Source of the DNA: Flavobacteriales bacterium
GTDB lineage: Bacteria > Bacteroidota > Bacteroidia > UBA10329
Reading direction: 5' to 3'
DNA length: 35,624 nt
Assembly (NCBI GenBank): GCA_021739625.1
Contig: JAIPBJ010000025.1
Coordinates: 1-35,624, forward strand
In this document: positions 23,332 to 35,624 of the stretch, in pieces
Layout of the letters: every line of letters begins with the position of its first letter
Numbering within the stretch: the first letter of the stretch is position 1
The notes under the pieces: model-generated
Database searches by the model: none
Seen by the model: the letters and a program-made list of their open reading frames with translations, nothing else
Told to the model about the DNA's origin: nothing
Position numbers and translations under genes: made by a program

Positions 23332-24468
23332 TCAATCCTTACCTCCACCGGTCAACTTCCGCTTACCGGCCCAGCCGAACGAATAGCCCACCTTGAGGTC
23401 GAGGAAATCTGCCACCTGATGATGGGCTTTCAATCCCGCACTGACAAAAAGCCAGGGGGTCACATGGAACGTGAGTTCGTGGCGATGATACCAACGTGCT
23501 ATCTCCGGAAAATCGTCAAAGGCATAGACCCCCACATATTGCCCGAACTGAATCTTGCCCAGCCAGAACTCATGGCCCACATAGACCGAGGCCCGATGGT
23601 GGCTGCGTGTCGGGTCATCGGACCGAAGGATGCGCACCCTGCGCGAAATGTCCATTTCCCATGTAGCCCCGCCTGCCACAGCCGATGAACGGTGGAACCA
23701 GCGCGCATATTGCGCACTTATGTTGAGCACCCAGAACTGCGCTGGATTCTGGGCCGAAGCGTTCTTCAAGGCGTTGCCCACATCCAGCTCAAAGCGGTTC
23801 TTCTTCTCGGGCGGTGGTCTGCGCATTCTGCCGCGTGCGGCCAGCGCCACAGGCCGGAAGGTGTATTCCACGCCCAGATGGCCAGATGGGAAATTCAACC
23901 CCTTGTTGGGGTTACGGATGCCTCCGTTGCTGATGTGGTTGTAATTGCCACCGATGCGGATGTTCCAGCGGTCGGTTACCCGATAGCTGAATCCGATGCC
24001 CAGCACGAGTGGGAAGGCCACATTTGTGCTGTAGGCAAGATTGTGAGGATTGCTCACCTCGTGATATGGCCTGTCCATGAAGGCAAGTCCCAGAAGCCCA
24101 ATCCTGAATGAAAGATTGAACCTGCGCGGCACGAAGAACACAGGTTCCACATAGATGTAGGTGTAATAGGCCGAACCGAGCACGGGGCCATTGTCGAAAT
24201 TGAAATAGTTGACCGAGAGTCCCACTCGCGGATAGCAACTGCAAAAGCGATAGGCCTTGTCGGTGATGAGCTGCCAGCCCAGATCGGCCTCGAACCCGAA
24301 AGGGTAGGACTGCTTGAATTCAAACTCGGAGGAGTGTTTGAGCAGATAGCCGTAGTGCCCACGAAGTCCAAGTGAGAAGATACTCCTGCGCGTGCTGTCG
24401 GGCGCAGTCTGTGCCAATGCTGATGCGCTGAGCAGAACGCAGAGGGCTATGACGGATGTACGCAGCAC
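23332..24468 (-). CDS. PagL-like lipid A 3-O-deacylase / acyloxyacyl hydrolase family outer-membrane protein
   Basis: 378 residues with a signal peptide (VIALCVLLSASALAQ) from a GTG start at 24468. The segment NYNHISNGGIRNPNKGLN at residues 175-192 matches the active-site region of PagL, an outer-membrane esterase that removes the 3-O acyl chain of lipid A. His178 and Ser180 correspond to the catalytic His and Ser. The rest alternates strand-like blocks (FSLGLRGHYGYLL, YIYVEPVFFVPRRFNLSFRI, PLVLGIGFSYRV, HLGVEYTFRPV). At 378 residues it is about twice the length of PagL; the second half (from about 225) looks like a further barrel-like region. Lipid A remodelling in the outer membrane is the likely role. 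The gene faces repeat array C. Confidence 0.82.
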   Translation of the reverse strand: MLRTSVIALCVLLSASALAQTAPDSTRRSIFSLGLRGHYGYLLKHSSEFEFKQSYPFGFEADLGWQLITDKAYRFCSCYPRVGLSVNYFNFDNGPVLGSAYYTYIYVEPVFFVPRRFNLSFRIGLLGLAFMDRPYHEVSNPHNLAYSTNVAFPLVLGIGFSYRVTDRWNIRIGGNYNHISNGGIRNPNKGLNFPSGHLGVEYTFRPVALAARGRMRRPPPEKKNRFELDVGNALKNASAQNPAQFWVLNISAQYARWFHRSSAVAGGATWEMDISRRVRILRSDDPTRSHHRASVYVGHEFWLGKIQFGQYVGVYAFDDFPEIARWYHRHELTFHVTPWLFVSAGLKAHHQVADFLDLKVGYSFGWAGKRKLTGGGKD

Positions 24469-29253: not shown

Positions 29254-29712
29254 TCAGTCCCACTTCATGAATTTGGAAGTGAACGTCTCTCCCATTGATT
29301 CGGCAATAATGAAATAGATGCCCTGCCGATAGCCATATACAGGGATGTAGAGCTGTTCGTTGCTCACGCTGTGCATGAACCGGTAGTACATGATATTGCC
29401 GGTGCGGTCGAAGATGTAGATGTTGACATCGCCCTCGAAACGCGTGGCCACGCTCAGATTGATGAACTCCCCGACAGGGTTGGGATAGAACCTGAATGCC
29501 ACCTTTTCGCAAGGCCCTTCGCTATAGAAGTTGAGGGCGGCATACTGCCAGTGGCAGAAATTGATATAGGTGACCTGATCGCACCCACAGACGGGAATGT
29601 AATCGTTGTAGCAGGGCGGATTCTGGAGTGGGAAGGAAAGACTGTCAGCACATTGGCCCTGCACATTCAAGGCGAGCGAGAGCGCAATGGAGAAAGTGGT
29701 CAGGAACTTCAT
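29254..29712 (-). CDS. T9SS-secreted Kazal-type protease inhibitor-like protein
   Basis: 152 residues. A signal peptide (1-20) is followed by a Kazal-like domain with six cysteines at 21, 34, 42, 44, 53 and 68, including the diagnostic PVCGCDQVTYINFC and closing GPC. The remainder (about 74-152) is a type A T9SS sorting domain: FRFYPNPVGEFINL, VNIYIFDRTGNIMYY, and QGIYFII near the end, finishing in KFMKW. Kazal domains block serine proteases by a canonical loop; inhibition here is inferred only. The product is predicted to be exported and attached to or released from the cell surface. ATG 29712 overlaps the upstream stop as ATGA. Confidence 0.9.
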   Translation of the reverse strand: MKFLTTFSIALSLALNVQGQCADSLSFPLQNPPCYNDYIPVCGCDQVTYINFCHWQYAALNFYSEGPCEKVAFRFYPNPVGEFINLSVATRFEGDVNIYIFDRTGNIMYYRFMHSVSNEQLYIPVYGYRQGIYFIIAESMGETFTSKFMKWD

Positions 29713-31082
29713 TCGGCCTCCGAAGTTAAGCTGTCCTGAACAAACAGCTTGACTTTTCCACCGAAGTGAAGGCTCAGGTGGCGATTAAGATGATGGGCCG
29801 TGTCCGTCCTTATCTCGGCCGACTGCAACCAGCCCGCATCCGGAAGTGGTCTGAGTGCCAGCAATGTGTCGCCAAGCTCCACAGCCTCTGCAATGTTCTG
29901 CATCCTGTCATCCACCGCTTCTGCGTAGCGCATGGCACGCGGCAGTTCGATGGCCAGTTCACCTACCTGATAGCCCAGCAGCACCACCTGTGCCACCAGT
30001 GCCAGATGGAACAGCCAGCCCTTGAGCTTCGCATCCAACCAATCGCCCAACTGCCACGCCATGGCCGCGCCCAACACAAGCATCGCGGCAGAGATGGGAA
30101 GCCATGCCCTGTCAGGCCCCATATCGCTCATCAGCAGCCCCATCATCAACGAAACAAACAGCATCATAATGTCGGTCAGGGCAAAACCGTGGCGGTTGCC
30201 GCTGAAAAGCTCCGAGAGTCCACTGACCTGACTTTGGCGTGTGATCATCCCCATCCAGGCCACGGGCAGCAGGAATGCCAGCATCGCTGGCAGCACAGTT
30301 GGGATGCGGAACAGCAGCAGCCGACCATAATTCTTCAAGGCTATCAACAGTCTGTCTGTCAATGGCATTTGCGGCAGATGTTCAAAGCGCACCTGTGCCC
30401 CATTGCCCATCGCATCGATGATGAGACCTGTGAGGCAGGCGATGGTCGCTACATGGAACATCCTCGGGCCGATGCTTTCACCCCGCAGCAGACCGATGTA
30501 GATGAGCAGGATGAGCGTACACACGGCCACTGTCTCGGATGAACCGCCCACATAAAGGAATACCAATGTCACCATTGGAATGCGCCACCACTTCCCGCCA
30601 TTCATAATCAGCAGCCCGAAACCGAACGCCACGGCCAGCACTCCCCACAGATACATGGGGACCGAACAGAGCCAGTACCACGTGTCGCCCGTGCCGAACG
30701 ACACATAGAACAGCCCTGCCAACACATAGAATGGCAGATAGAGATACATGATGGTGAACTCTTGGAAGATGATCTTGAACAGCATCGCAAAGGCCGCCCA
30801 GCCCAGCGCCATTGTCAGCACGTGAAGCAGCGGCAGCGTGACTCCGTCCTGCCACCCCGAAAAGAACCCATTGACCACCAGGGTCGATGCCCAGCGCGGG
30901 TTCCAATTGTGGTAAAGCAGCACCATCGCATCCCAAACGCCATGCTCCCGCGTCAGCGCCAGATATTGGAAATCATCAGCAGACGGGCGGTTATAGAAAC
31001 CTATGGACAGGAATGTGACCACGAAGATGAACGCATTCGCGCCCATCAGCAGGTTCATCCATTTCTCGCGTGTGGTGTCCAT
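29709..31082 (-). CDS. Polytopic membrane protein, DUF6056-like
   Basis: 457 residues with ten or more hydrophobic segments. After the first transmembrane helix comes the conserved-looking loop NRPSADDFQYLALTREHGVW, with an Asp-Asp pair. LLYHNWNPRWAS follows shortly after, matching the DUF6056 family of putative GT-C-type glycosyltransferase-like proteins as I remember it. The acidic pair in the first periplasmic loop is the usual catalytic location in GT-C enzymes. The last 70 residues are a soluble tail. It lies between an LTA-synthase-family gene and the Kazal gene, which suggests an envelope-glycan role. The start is ATG 31082, 91 bp after the upstream stop; the stop overlaps the Kazal start. 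Confidence 0.72.
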   Translation of the reverse strand: MDTTREKWMNLLMGANAFIFVVTFLSIGFYNRPSADDFQYLALTREHGVWDAMVLLYHNWNPRWASTLVVNGFFSGWQDGVTLPLLHVLTMALGWAAFAMLFKIIFQEFTIMYLYLPFYVLAGLFYVSFGTGDTWYWLCSVPMYLWGVLAVAFGFGLLIMNGGKWWRIPMVTLVFLYVGGSSETVAVCTLILLIYIGLLRGESIGPRMFHVATIACLTGLIIDAMGNGAQVRFEHLPQMPLTDRLLIALKNYGRLLLFRIPTVLPAMLAFLLPVAWMGMITRQSQVSGLSELFSGNRHGFALTDIMMLFVSLMMGLLMSDMGPDRAWLPISAAMLVLGAAMAWQLGDWLDAKLKGWLFHLALVAQVVLLGYQVGELAIELPRAMRYAEAVDDRMQNIAEAVELGDTLLALRPLPDAGWLQSAEIRTDTAHHLNRHLSLHFGGKVKLFVQDSLTSEAE

Positions 31083-31173
31083 TTGTTCTTCAGCGTTGAT
31101 ATGGCGTAGGGATGGAAAACAGGCAACAAACGGACACCTCGGTCATGCGGAGACCATTTTCAATTTTCGGGGA

Positions 31174-33111
31174 CTAATTTCCACTCCCTACCTGCATTTC
31201 ATTGTCTATCAACCTCTGGTTATACTGTTGAATGAATGCCTTGACGCGGAGTTCCAGCGAATCCACAACATCCGGCCGAGCGGTCAGCAGATTCTCCCGA
31301 AGCATCGTATCCTGCTTGAAATTGAACAGAGCTGTGCTGCGGCTGCCATCGAACTGAAGCAGATGGTCACCCATGAAGATCTGATGGAAACCGTTGTAGT
31401 TGACCACAAATGGCTCCAAGCTGTCATTGAGCACGTCATTGCCGAAGGCGATGAAAGGGCTGTCGTGGCCCAGATGATTCAGCACGGTGGGCATGATGTC
31501 GTTCTGCTGTACCAATCTCTTCGAGCGGCCATGCAGACTTCCATCGGGACGATAGAAGATGATGGGAACTGCGAACACCCCTGCACTGGTCTGAAACTGG
31601 CGGTGGTGCGTGTCAACATTGGTGTGGTCGGCAGTGATGACGAAAAGGGTATTGTCGAACCAAGGCATCTTGGACGCGGTGGCAAAGAATCTTCTGAGCG
31701 CGTTGTCCGTGTATCCGATGCACTTGTGGATGCTTAGATTGCCTTCTGGAAAAACACCTTTGTATGATTCTGGGACACTGTAGGGATGATGCGATGACAC
31801 AGTGAAGACGGCCGTATGAAATGGTTGGCGCATCCCATTCATCTGTGCAGCGAAGAATTGAAGGAACGGCTCGTCCCAGATGCCCCAATTGCCGTCAAAG
31901 TCTGCATTGTTGCCATATTCATCCCTGCCCACATACTTCTGATAGCCAGCGATGCGCGCAAATGCCTGAAAGCCCATTGACCCATTGGGCGCACCATGGA
32001 AGAACGCAGTGGAATACCCATGCTCGCCCAGAATGGAAGCAAGGCTGTTGATGTCATTGCCAGCGTAGGGCGTGAGCACATAAGGCTCTACCAGCGATGG
32101 GATGCTTGCAAGGATCGAAGGCATGGCATCGATGGATTTCTTCCCATTGGCAAAGGAGTGCTCGAATGTCAGGCCCTTACCGATCAATGAATCGAGAAAC
32201 GGGGTGTAGCCCACACTCAGGCCGTTGAGCGCACCGATATATTCTTTGCCGAAACTCTCCAGAATAATGACCACCACATTGAGGGGACGGAAGACGGCAC
32301 TGTCGGCAGGCATCCGGACAGGTGAAAAGAGGGCCGCCATCTCAATTTCATCCTTGAAATAATCCACTTTCTCCAGCGGAGTGATCTCCAGTGTTTTGAG
32401 AATGGCGAAAGGCGTGTTGAGCACCACGGCCATTTCCAGCGGACGCTGCACGTACTGCCCCGCATTGCTCAGGGTGATGGGCCGAAGCCCTTTTTCAAAG
32501 CCACCGCGCACACCGCCCACGAAAGCCACCGTGCCGATGCAGAGCAACAATGCGCCAACGGGAAAGTAAATGCCTGCCCGGGACAGTTTCGCTGGACGCG
32601 GCAGTGCCTTGCCATAGGTCAGGAAAAGCAACGCGACCAAAGCGGCCAGCAACAGTGCCAACCACCAGTAGTCGACCATGAACCGGAGCGAAAGCCCCAC
32701 CATGTTGGTCTCGTTGCTGAACTCCTGCACCACGCTGGCGGTCGTTCTGCGAAGGGTGAATCGGAAATAGGCGATGTCGATGCAGTTAAGCCCCAACGCG
32801 ATCGTGTTGCTCACAAGAAAGAGCCATTTGGCCGACAGTTGATAACCGGAGTTGTATCGGAATGGGAACGGTACCGTGAAAAGGAAAATGAACAGGATGT
32901 TGACGTAGAGCACGGCCACGAGGTCGAAACGCAGGCCGCCCACCATCATCACGGCCAACCGTTCTGGTGTCACATCGGGAAAAAAACCAAGGTTGTAGAA
33001 ATAGAAGACCGCCCTGAGCATCGAAAAGAGTACCAGCACCACCAGCAGGCGCCTGAGAAGCGCAGCATAGAGGTCGAGGCTCAGGGAGTTCAATGCTGTG
33101 GCGATGGACAT
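31174..33111 (-). CDS. LTA synthase family membrane phosphotransferase/sulfatase-fold protein
   Basis: 645 residues. Five or so N-terminal transmembrane segments (within about 15-200) are followed by a periplasmic alkaline-phosphatase/sulfatase-type domain (about 275-600). Metal and catalytic residues are visible: Glu285 in VVIILESFGKE; the nucleophile region NGKKSIDAMPSILASIPSL with Ser326 where Gram-positive LtaS has Thr; and Asp495-His496 in ITADHTN. Gram-negative members transfer phosphoglycerol or phosphoethanolamine to envelope glycans, though the substrate here is unknown. A consensus TATTTTTG promoter precedes ATG 33111. It heads a minus-strand unit with the DUF6056-like and Kazal genes. 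Confidence 0.92.
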   Translation of the reverse strand: MSIATALNSLSLDLYAALLRRLLVVLVLFSMLRAVFYFYNLGFFPDVTPERLAVMMVGGLRFDLVAVLYVNILFIFLFTVPFPFRYNSGYQLSAKWLFLVSNTIALGLNCIDIAYFRFTLRRTTASVVQEFSNETNMVGLSLRFMVDYWWLALLLAALVALLFLTYGKALPRPAKLSRAGIYFPVGALLLCIGTVAFVGGVRGGFEKGLRPITLSNAGQYVQRPLEMAVVLNTPFAILKTLEITPLEKVDYFKDEIEMAALFSPVRMPADSAVFRPLNVVVIILESFGKEYIGALNGLSVGYTPFLDSLIGKGLTFEHSFANGKKSIDAMPSILASIPSLVEPYVLTPYAGNDINSLASILGEHGYSTAFFHGAPNGSMGFQAFARIAGYQKYVGRDEYGNNADFDGNWGIWDEPFLQFFAAQMNGMRQPFHTAVFTVSSHHPYSVPESYKGVFPEGNLSIHKCIGYTDNALRRFFATASKMPWFDNTLFVITADHTNVDTHHRQFQTSAGVFAVPIIFYRPDGSLHGRSKRLVQQNDIMPTVLNHLGHDSPFIAFGNDVLNDSLEPFVVNYNGFHQIFMGDHLLQFDGSRSTALFNFKQDTMLRENLLTARPDVVDSLELRVKAFIQQYNQRLIDNEMQVGSGN

Positions 33112-33133
33112 TGGGGCCGGTCTGGAATCCCGT

Positions 33134-33141
33134 CAAAAATA
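33134..33141 (-). promoter_or_regulatory. Promoter -7 element of the LTA-synthase-family operon
   Basis: Minus-strand TATTTTTG matches TAnnTTTG exactly, with the ATG 22 bp downstream. No TTG at the 19-nt spacing. Confidence 0.5.
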
Positions 33142-33216: not shown

Positions 33217-33247
33217 AAAAAACCCGCTAACGTATTCAGTTAGCGGG
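33217..33247 (-). terminator. Rho-independent terminator of tRNA-Lys
   Basis: Perfect 9-bp stem CCCGCTAAC (33223-33231) / GTTAGCGGG (33239-33247) with a 7-nt loop. On the minus strand it is followed by a run of six T (33222-33217), placed directly after the tRNA 3' end. Confidence 0.92.
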
Positions 33248-33255
33248 CTTTGATG

Positions 33256-33328
33256 TGACCTGGCTGGGGCTCGAACCCAGGACCCTAACATTAAAAGTGT
33301 TATGCTCTACCAGCTGAGCTACCAGATC
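33256..33328 (-). tRNA. tRNA-Lys (anticodon TTT)
   Basis: Minus-strand cloverleaf: acceptor arms GATCTGG/CCAGGTC pair through all seven positions (one T-G wobble). D-arm sequence AGCTCAGCTGGTAGAGC; anticodon loop CTTTTAA with anticodon TTT between ATAAC-A and T-GTTA stem sides; T-arm CTGGG-TTCGAGC-CCCAG. The CCA end is not encoded. The discriminator base is A. Confidence 0.97.
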
Positions 33329-33439: not shown

Positions 33440-34663
33440 TCACTTATTCAATCGGATGGAATGCCCCATCTTATCACGCTTCGTATCGAGATAGAAGCGA
33501 TTGTGGTCGTTGGCCTCAAGTTCAATGGGCACATTCTCGACCACTTCGAGGCCATAGCCTACCAGCCCGGTGCGTTTCTTCGGGTTGTTGCTCATGAGCA
33601 GCATCTTGCTCACCCCAAGGTCGCGCAGAATCTGGGCCCCGATGCCATAATCGCGCTCGTCCATTCCGAATCCGAGGGCCAGATTGGCCTCAACGGTGTC
33701 CATGCCCTGTTCCTGAAGTTTGTAGGCTTTCAGCTTATTGATCAGTCCGATGCCACGCCCTTCCTGATTCATATAGACAATGACCCCTTTCCCTGCCTCC
33801 TCCACCATGCGCATGGCTGTTTGAAGCTGCGCACCGCAGTCGCATCGGCAGGAACCGAAGATATCGCCCGTGACACATGAGGAGTGAACACGCACCAGCA
33901 CCGGCTCGTCCTTCTCCCACGTGCCTTTGACCAATGCCAGATGGTTCTGGTCGGTGGTGGTCTGACGATAGGCGTGAAGTTGAAAATCGCCCCATTCGGT
34001 GGGCATGTTCACATCCACCACGCGCTCAATGAGCGACTCATGGGCCATTCGGTACTCGATCAGGTCTTTGATGCTGATGAGTTTGAGCCCGAACCGTTTG
34101 GCAATTACTGTGAGCTCGGGCAGGCGGGCCATTGTGCCGTCCTCGTTCATTATCTCTACGATGACCCCGGCAGGCTCAAAGCCCGCCATGCGTGCAAGGT
34201 CTATGGCCGCCTCTGTGTGTCCGGCCCTTCGCAGCACTCCACCTTGACGGGCCCTGAGCGGGAAAATATGACCTGGCTTTCCAAGCTCTTCTGGACGGAT
34301 GTTGGGGTCGATGAGCGCTTTGACCGTCTTGGCACGGTCGCTCACCGATATGCCGGTGGAGCAGCCATGGCCTATGAGGTCGACACTGACTGTGAACGGG
34401 GTCTCGAAAGCTGCACTGTTGCGGCTCACCATCAGTTCGAGGCCCAAAGCCTCGCATCGCGATTCGACCAACGGGGCGCATATCAGTCCACGGCCGTGCG
34501 TGGCCATGAAATTGATCATTTCGGGGGTCGCGCAGCGTGCAGCGGCCACGAAGTCTCCTTCGTTCTCGCGATCTGCATCGTCCACCACAATGACCACTTT
34601 TCCATTGCGGATGTCTTCGATGGCATCCTCTACGGAATCCAGCACTATCTCATTTTCGCTCAT
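33440..34663 (-). CDS. ribBA: Bifunctional 3,4-dihydroxy-2-butanone-4-phosphate synthase / GTP cyclohydrolase II
   Basis: 407 residues from ATG 34663. The N-terminal RibB domain (about 1-205) makes the four-carbon riboflavin precursor; it shows the acidic active site [24 protein letters not shown] and [13 protein letters not shown] with RRAGHTEA. The C-terminal RibA domain (about 210-407) opens the GTP imidazole ring; it has [15 protein letters not shown] followed by the zinc-binding [17 protein letters not shown], and the end [13 protein letters not shown]. Both domains look intact. The open frame extends 167 codons further upstream, but this extension is shadow sequence. A TACCTTTG promoter sits 18 bp before the ATG, leaving no room for an FMN riboswitch. 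Confidence 0.97.
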
Positions 34664-34838: not shown

Positions 34839-35624
34839 CTATTCGATGCTGAACCCCATCGCCACCTTGTTCCTTCTGTATGGGAAGAAATCGACCAGAC
34901 GGCCATCGCGGTGCATGTGCTGCATCTCTTTCCAGAATGTGGTGTCGAAGAGGTCGGCATGATGCTCCATGAACACCCTGCGCAGCTCGCCCAATGGGGC
35001 CATGAAGGCATCGAACTCCTCGGGGAACACATCGTTGTCTGCCACGGTGTACCATGGTTCGCCCGAATAGACCTGTTCTGGCCTGCGCGGGGTGGGAATC
35101 CTTCGGAAATTGACCTGATCGAGGAAACATAGCTCGTCATAATCATAGAAGATGACCCGACCATGACGTGTGACCCCGAAATTCTTCAGGAGCAGGTCGC
35201 CTGGAAAGATATTGGCGGCAGCCAACTCCTTCACCGCATAGCCATAGTCGATGATGACCGCAGCGGCCCTGTCGGGCGGGGCGGTCTCGAGCAGCAGGTT
35301 CAGTGGCACCAGTTTCTTCTCGGTGAACAGGTGCCTGATCACAAGTCTGTCGCCCTTCACCGAAGCGCTCCCGCCACATTCATTCAGCAGTTCGTCAAGC
35401 ACCGGCCCAGAGAAACGGTCGAGGTCGAATTCGATGTGGTCATACTCCATGGCATCGGCCAAGCGGCCCACGCGGTCGTGCAGAAGCACCAGGCGATAGC
35501 TGTCGATGACGTGCTGACGGCCGAAATTCTTGGTGGGACCGAACCTGTCGCGGATCACCTTGAACACCACATTGAAGGTAGGCAGGGTGAACACGGCCAT
35601 GACCATCCCCTTGGTTCCGGGAGC
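34839..35624 (-). CDS. aceK: Isocitrate dehydrogenase kinase/phosphatase, C-terminal part (partial)
   Basis: The last 261 residues of a protein normally about 570-600 long; the 5' part lies beyond the right edge. AceK phosphorylates and dephosphorylates isocitrate dehydrogenase, steering carbon between the TCA cycle and the glyoxylate shunt. The kinase-like domain motifs are present: [15 protein letters not shown] at the window edge, [16 protein letters not shown], the catalytic loop segment [20 protein letters not shown] and [11 protein letters not shown], and the conserved Pro-rich [10 protein letters not shown]. It ends with [18 protein letters not shown]. No truncation is seen within the visible part. 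No aceA, aceB or icd gene is in the window, so the context cannot be judged further. Confidence 0.94.

What the first reader, a model, noticed from the sequence alone, without database searches (positions are those of the whole stretch)
29254..33141. Secreted Kazal inhibitor in an operon with an LTA-synthase-family enzyme and a GT-C-like membrane protein
A T9SS-delivered protease-inhibitor-like protein is coupled (ATGA) to envelope polymer genes behind one consensus promoter. It could guard the surface against host, prey or community proteases, or act on T9SS surface proteases. The pairing with a phosphoglycerol/phosphoethanolamine-type transferase hints at surface modification of the same substrate.
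Basis: partly seen in the sequence, partly recalled or inferred. Interest (0 to 1): 0.5.

Follow-up and report, generated by a model that had tools for sequence, protein, structure and literature searches.

The report
Surface Kazal protein paired with DUF6056-like gene
A freshwater-type Bacteroidota genome carries a small exported protein that looks like an animal-style protease inhibitor, inherited together with a membrane-protein gene but only accidentally next to the third 'operon' gene, so the trio is not a conserved system although the small protein belongs to a widespread and apparently undescribed family.

Summary
The three minus-strand genes exist as described: LtaS-family enzyme (33111-31174), polytopic membrane protein (31082-29709), and a 152-aa Kazal/T9SS protein (29712-29254, ATGA overlap). 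The three-gene unit is not conserved. In the window genome that ancestral block is split over three contigs, yet the two genes stayed together and moved beside a non-orthologous LtaS copy. So the real unit is a portable two-gene cassette; LtaS is incidental. The Kazal protein is one of an old Bacteroidia family (75 loci examined): six near-invariant cysteines with GmSPI-2 spacing but no classical Cys V (a CGC motif instead), variable reactive-site loop (7 or 8 residues; P1 often Pro), T9SS tail. Most likely a surface-tethered non-classical Kazal domain that blunts foreign proteases; inhibition is unproven and the loop argues for unusual specificity or none. The membrane protein is a divergent DUF6056 relative; GT-C identity is suggested by an invariant DD after TM1, not shown. 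A D-S/T-L O-glycosylation motif follows the first Kazal cysteine in all 7 genus members.

The parts
29254..29712 (-). 152-aa Kazal-like protein with signal peptide and T9SS sorting tail
29653..29712 (-). signal peptide (residues 1-20, by eye; no lipobox, residue before Cys21 is Gln)
   Evidence: sequence
29509..29652 (-). Kazal-like domain, Cys21-Cys68 (C21,C34,C42,C44,C53,C68)
29590..29610 (-). reactive-site loop Y35-N36(P1)-D37-Y38-I39-P40-V41 between Cys34 and Cys42
29638..29646 (-). D23-S24-L25, matches the Bacteroidota O-glycosylation motif
29269..29487 (-). Por_Secre_tail (T9SS C-terminal sorting domain), residues 76-148
29709..31082 (-). 457-aa polytopic membrane protein, divergent DUF6056 relative, GT-C-like (R32, D36-D37 invariant after TM1)
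31174..33111 (-). 645-aa LtaS/alkaline-phosphatase-superfamily enzyme, second non-orthologous copy; incidental neighbour
33134..33141 (-). TATTTTTG, Bacteroidetes -7-box-like, 22 nt before the LtaS ATG
33219..33251 (-). terminator-like hairpin after tRNA-Lys, separating it from the cluster
33255..33328 (-). tRNA-Lys (TTT)

Best explanation
The real unit is a two-gene cassette: a DUF6056-like inner-membrane protein followed, with overlapping or nearly touching ends, by a small secreted protein. The small protein is exported by Sec, passes the outer membrane by type IX secretion, and is fixed to the surface through its sorting tail, leaving a roughly 50-residue non-classical Kazal domain exposed. 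There its loop (P1 Asn36 here, often Pro or Thr in relatives) most likely occupies and blunts foreign or stray serine peptidases at the cell surface. The membrane protein probably adds a sugar to an envelope glycan or to exported proteins. The LtaS-like gene upstream is a lineage-specific neighbour that may lend its promoter. Shown: gene order, domain calls, cysteine pattern, family spread, joint relocation. Inferred: surface anchoring, inhibition, glycosyl transfer, co-transcription.
For: Domain calls; SprA is encoded in the same genome. Pair adjacent in 5 of 8 genus relatives and in the window genome, coupled by a 4-nt or 1-nt overlap or a 7-nt gap where read. In the window genome rplT (C116), fur-purA (C51) and the pair (C28) lie on three different contigs, so the pair moved as a unit. 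Cys34-Cys53 and Cys42-Cys68 distances (19 and 26) equal those of GmSPI-2 (5-24, 13-39), an active subtilisin and proteinase K inhibitor with P1 Thr7. Family found in 88 of 395 class genomes at E 1e-15; in 75 examined loci the scaffold Pro40, Thr48, Tyr49, Asn51 is invariant while loop positions vary, as in inhibitors under changing targets.
Against: Loop length is 8 rather than the canonical 7 in 30 of 73 members, and P1 is Pro in 17 of the 43 with 7, unfavourable for ordinary serine peptidases (recalled). Kazal_1 score only just passes. The AlphaFold model of the Kazal domain is unreliable (pLDDT about 35). G005 keeps Kazal without the membrane protein; outside the genus the two are adjacent in 0 of 10 genomes that have both.
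Confidence: 0.45

Rival explanations
1. The Kazal-like domain is a non-inhibitory disulfide-stabilised surface module (binding or structural), as Kazal-like modules are in agrin or follistatin.
For: Reactive loop of variable length and P1, family profile also matches agrin and follistatin modules, strongly conserved scaffold.
Against: Seven-residue loop, P40 and Y/F38 kept in the genus as in active inhibitors; cysteine spacing equals GmSPI-2.
Confidence: 0.3
2. Enzyme-substrate pair: the DUF6056-like protein is a GT-C glycosyltransferase that modifies the Kazal protein (D-S/T-L after Cys I) or its anchor.
For: D-[ST]-L in 7 of 7 genus members, strict motif D[ST][AILVMT] at that place in 43 of 73 family members, 46 strict motifs in all against 23.8 in shuffles; DSL and DTL are among the four commonest glycosylated motifs in Prevotella intermedia; O-oligosaccharyltransferase genes lie beside pilin homologs in 21 of 31 cases.
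Against: D23 is conserved also before Pro and others, so helix capping could explain it; G005 keeps the DTL motif without the enzyme; in 5 loci outside the genus the DUF6056 relative has no such neighbour; GT-C status not shown.
Confidence: 0.12
3. The pair is linked by history only: translational coupling inside the genus with no shared function.
For: Pairing confined to one genus; separable in G005; Kazal genes elsewhere sit beside unrelated housekeeping genes.
Against: They moved together while the surrounding block broke up.
Confidence: 0.35
4. The reader's three-gene surface-modification operon.
For: Same strand, 91-nt gap without listed terminator, one -7-like box upstream.
Against: LtaS adjacency in 0 of 8 genus relatives; window LtaS groups with other families (99/100), not with the genus LtaS.
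Confidence: 0.06

Closest known systems
Non-classical Kazal inhibitors, GmSPI-2 (2m5x, 4hgu) and LDTI (1an1)
   Same: Cys II-IV and III-VI spacing (GmSPI-2), 7-residue loop in the window protein, conserved P-V-C-G-x-D-x-x-T-Y-x-N scaffold
   Different: An extra N-terminal Cys pairs by inference with a Cys right after Cys III (CGC); bacterial, with a T9SS tail; loop of 8 residues in many members
Classical Kazal inhibitors (ovomucoid third domain, SPINK)
   Same: Scaffold motif and four of the six cysteines
   Different: Classical Cys V is absent; inhibition untested
T9SS type A cargo proteins (TIGR04183, PF18962)
   Same: Signal peptide and C-terminal sorting domain above cut-off; SprA in genome
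   Different: Cargo is one tiny Kazal-like domain, not an enzyme or adhesin
DUF6056 (PF19528) membrane proteins
   Same: Relatives in the same alignment hit the family; invariant R-x3-DD after TM1
   Different: The window protein itself does not hit; function of DUF6056 unknown
LtaS-family phosphoglycerol transferases
   Same: Sulfatase domain, conserved Glu and Asp-His
   Different: Far below the LTA synthase equivalog cut-off; Ser at the nucleophile place (that Thr is usual is recalled); not part of the conserved unit

Membership tests
Kazal inhibitor | Pfam Kazal_1 gathering score | tested here: met
   21.4 against 21 bits
Kazal inhibitor | Cys II-x7-Cys III loop and Y-x-P-x-C-G-x-D-x-x-T-Y-x-N scaffold | tested here: met
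   window protein and 43 of 73 members have x7; scaffold
Kazal inhibitor | Classical Cys V (I-V disulfide) | tested here: not met
   No Cys at IV+3; invariant Cys44 after Cys III instead
Kazal inhibitor | Inhibits a serine peptidase | not testable with these tools
   P1 Asn here; no assay
T9SS cargo | C-terminal sorting domain | tested here: met
   38.9 against 27 bits; TIGR04183 33.6 against 23
T9SS cargo | Translocon in the genome | tested here: met
   SprA_N 553.6 bits, G000:C36; 0 of 14 control genomes
T9SS cargo | Actual secretion and tail cleavage | not testable with these tools
   needs proteomics
DUF6056 | Pfam score over cut-off | tested here: not met
   P0002 no hit; 5 of 12 alignment members hit
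GT-C glycosyltransferase | Acidic motif in the first loop after TM1 | tested here: met
   D36-D37 invariant in 12 of 12, TM1 about 15-26
GT-C glycosyltransferase | GT-C fold or profile similarity | tested here: inconclusive
   AlphaFold pLDDT 45.5; hhalign against a 4-row PMT_2 alignment probability 0.3%
LTA synthase proper | NCBIfam equivalog cut-off | tested here: not met
   94.1 against 970 bits
Conserved three-gene operon | Same order in relatives | tested here: not met
   0 of 8 genus relatives

The most novel reading that the evidence does not exclude
A dedicated surface-protection cassette: a DUF6056 GT-C enzyme glycosylates the D-S/T-L site at the root of a T9SS-displayed non-classical Kazal domain (or its lipid anchor), giving Bacteroidota a glyco-shielded, surface-tethered peptidase inhibitor with a new disulfide arrangement and unusual, possibly prolyl-directed, specificity.
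Probability: 0.08. Interest if true: 0.6.

Novelty: new variant of a known kind. Interest (0 to 1): 0.3.

Why it matters
It separates a real, widespread family (single Kazal-like domain plus T9SS tail, 88 of 395 sampled class genomes) from a chance three-gene neighbourhood. I found no description of such a family in the papers searched. If inhibitory, it would be a surface inhibitor class for Bacteroidota with a shifted disulfide; if not, a case of a Kazal scaffold used for another purpose. The DUF6056 pairing gives a testable handle on a family for which the library holds no paper.

Tried and rejected
Three-gene operon: rejected by synteny. Recent island at tRNA-Lys: no 12-mer of the tRNA elsewhere in the window and no shift in GC or GC3. 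Remnant of the membrane-protein gene in G005: only matches at E 0.02 or worse in the 345-bp stretch. Other recurrent partners of the Kazal gene: neighbours cluster by lineage (seryl-tRNA synthetase, AIRS-type protein, L13/S9, fur-STAS-purA, ACP phosphodiesterase), with no functional theme. GT-C by profile or fold: inconclusive; low-confidence models were not searched against fold libraries. Paper searches on Kazal in Bacteroidetes, T9SS and Flavobacter gave nothing on such a family (listings only). Rows dropped before the 75-locus counts: places that were fragments, held stops, or lay in larger proteins (for example G063, G229, G200, G000:C74, G000:C114, G291).
Full report
Observation. On the minus strand lie an LtaS-family ORF (33111-31174, 645 aa), a polytopic membrane protein (31082-29709, 457 aa) and a 152-aa protein (29712-29254). 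The last two overlap by ATGA; the first two are 91 nt apart. A tRNA-Lys (33328-33255) with a terminator-like hairpin precedes the cluster. An exact TAnnTTTG lies 22 nt before the LtaS start and none lies inside the cluster; the motif itself is only mildly over-represented in the window (11 against 7.1 +/- 2.6), and I saw no convincing -33 element by eye.

What the genes are. The small protein has a signal peptide (by eye), a Kazal-like domain (21.4 bits, cut-off 21) and a T9SS sorting tail (38.9 bits, cut-off 27). A profile of 15 family members matches solved Kazal inhibitors, GmSPI-2 over the Cys II-VI part at 7.9e-8 and LDTI at 1.1e-7. The LtaS-like protein has a Sulfatase domain (131 bits) and the conserved Glu, Ser and Asp-His positions in the alignment (their catalytic meaning is recalled), but scores 94 against 970 for the LTA synthase equivalog. 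The membrane protein has no family hit; 5 of 12 members of its alignment hit DUF6056, and R32 and D36-D37 just after TM1 are invariant in all 12, which is where GT-C enzymes keep their acidic motif (recalled). A 5-row AlphaFold model was poor (pLDDT 45.5), and a comparison with a small PMT_2 alignment gave nothing, so GT-C remains a suggestion.

Conservation. Each protein was searched in 59 genomes: the window's own, 8 of its genus and 50 others of the class. The membrane protein and Kazal genes are adjacent in G002, G004, G006, G007 and G008 (5 of 8 relatives); G003 breaks off in the membrane protein at a contig end; G001 (70% complete) has neither; G005 has Kazal only. The LtaS-like gene is adjacent in none. 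In those relatives the pair sits in thrS-infC-rplT-[pair]-fur-STAS-purA. A tree of ThrS from 7 genomes places G005 inside the genus (one of its forks is weakly supported, and G001 and G002 are not in it), so G005 most likely lost the membrane protein; its rplT-Kazal gap of 324 nt shows no remnant. Two outside lineages keep part of the order without the membrane protein: rplT-Kazal in G053 (L052) and Kazal-fur-STAS-purA in G093 (L128). The Kazal gene is therefore probably the older resident and the membrane protein the later arrival.

Relocation. In the window genome rplT lies on C116 and is followed by a 453-aa ORF that I read as mpl, not by the pair; fur and purA lie on C51 without Kazal upstream; the pair is on C28 beside LtaS. 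The two genes stayed together while the block broke up. This is the best evidence that they form a unit. In two relatives there is a terminator-like hairpin between rplT and the pair (L076 by scan; L075 by eye), so the pair may be expressed partly apart from rplT there. The window LtaS groups with G047, G021 and G039 (99/100) and not with the genus LtaS, which the window genome also has on C113 followed by an ORF I read as diacylglycerol kinase. Base composition is ordinary.

The Kazal family. The profile hits 88 of 395 class genomes at E 1e-15 (some of these hits are fragments or parts of larger proteins). I examined 75 loci: the window, 14 taken earlier and 60 more. C21, C42, C44 and C68 are invariant, C34 and C53 each in 74 of 75; Pro40, Thr48, Tyr49 and Asn51 are invariant. 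The II-IV and III-VI spacings (19 and 26) equal those read for GmSPI-2, whose P1 is Thr7 (PMC4169406, passages). The classical fifth cysteine is missing; its partner role is taken, by inference, by Cys44. The loop between Cys II and III has 7 residues in 43 and 8 in 30 of the 73 members that fit the pattern; among the 43, P1 is Pro 17, Thr 10, Ser 3, Arg 3, Asn 2, Ala 2, Ile 2 and one each of Leu, Phe, Lys, Asp. [quoted passage not shown] that its P1 is Pro is recalled. These loops mean either varied unusual targets or a non-inhibitory role.

Neighbours elsewhere. In the 75 loci the membrane-protein family appears beside Kazal only in the window and L045-L049. In 10 genomes outside the genus that hold both families, they lie on different contigs in 9 and about 425 kb apart in one (draft contigs limit this). 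Kazal neighbours follow lineage: seryl-tRNA synthetase, metallo-beta-lactamase-fold protein, AIRS protein, ribosomal L13/S9, ACP phosphodiesterase.

Glycosylation idea. D-S-L follows the first Kazal cysteine; all 7 genus members have D-[ST]-L there, 43 of 73 family members the strict motif and 53 of 73 the motif with S, C, G, F added. The Bacteroidota motif is D(S/T)(A/I/L/M/T/V) and wider, DSL and DTL being among the four most abundant in P. intermedia (PMC10897501, abstract and passages). PglL genes lie beside pilin homologs in 21 of 31 cases (PMC3643930, passages). Against: the Asp is kept before Pro too, G005 keeps the motif without the enzyme, and DUF6056 relatives elsewhere have no such neighbour. 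It is a hypothesis only.

Verdict. A real two-gene cassette with a T9SS-tailed Kazal-like protein of an old family; the third gene is incidental. Interest 0.3.

Noticed in passing
G000:C74:10742-11077 (L002, L007, L068) and G000:C114:61178-61999 (L003, L069): Two further ORFs with Kazal-like domains (338 aa with two hits, 496 aa), scoring above the Kazal_1 cut-off and higher than the window protein.
   Followed up: partly
L067:4565-7356, L073:7040-9822, L074:6822-9592: The genus LtaS ortholog is followed directly by an ORF read as diacylglycerol kinase, which would recycle the diacylglycerol released by phosphoglycerol transfer.
   Followed up: no
window 34839-35606 and 33440-34651: An AceK isocitrate dehydrogenase kinase-domain ORF lies near the contig end beside RibBA; AceK is best known from proteobacteria (recalled).
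   Followed up: no
window 23332-24468: PagL/OMP-barrel protein beside PanB.
   Followed up: no
L134:4492-5259 and kin: In one family a Cas6-like gene is the neighbour of the Kazal gene.
   Followed up: no
L078, L075 record titles: Two genus relatives are deposited as 'Chryseobacterium gleum' MAGs, apparently a mislabel given the other members called Flavobacteriales.
   Followed up: no
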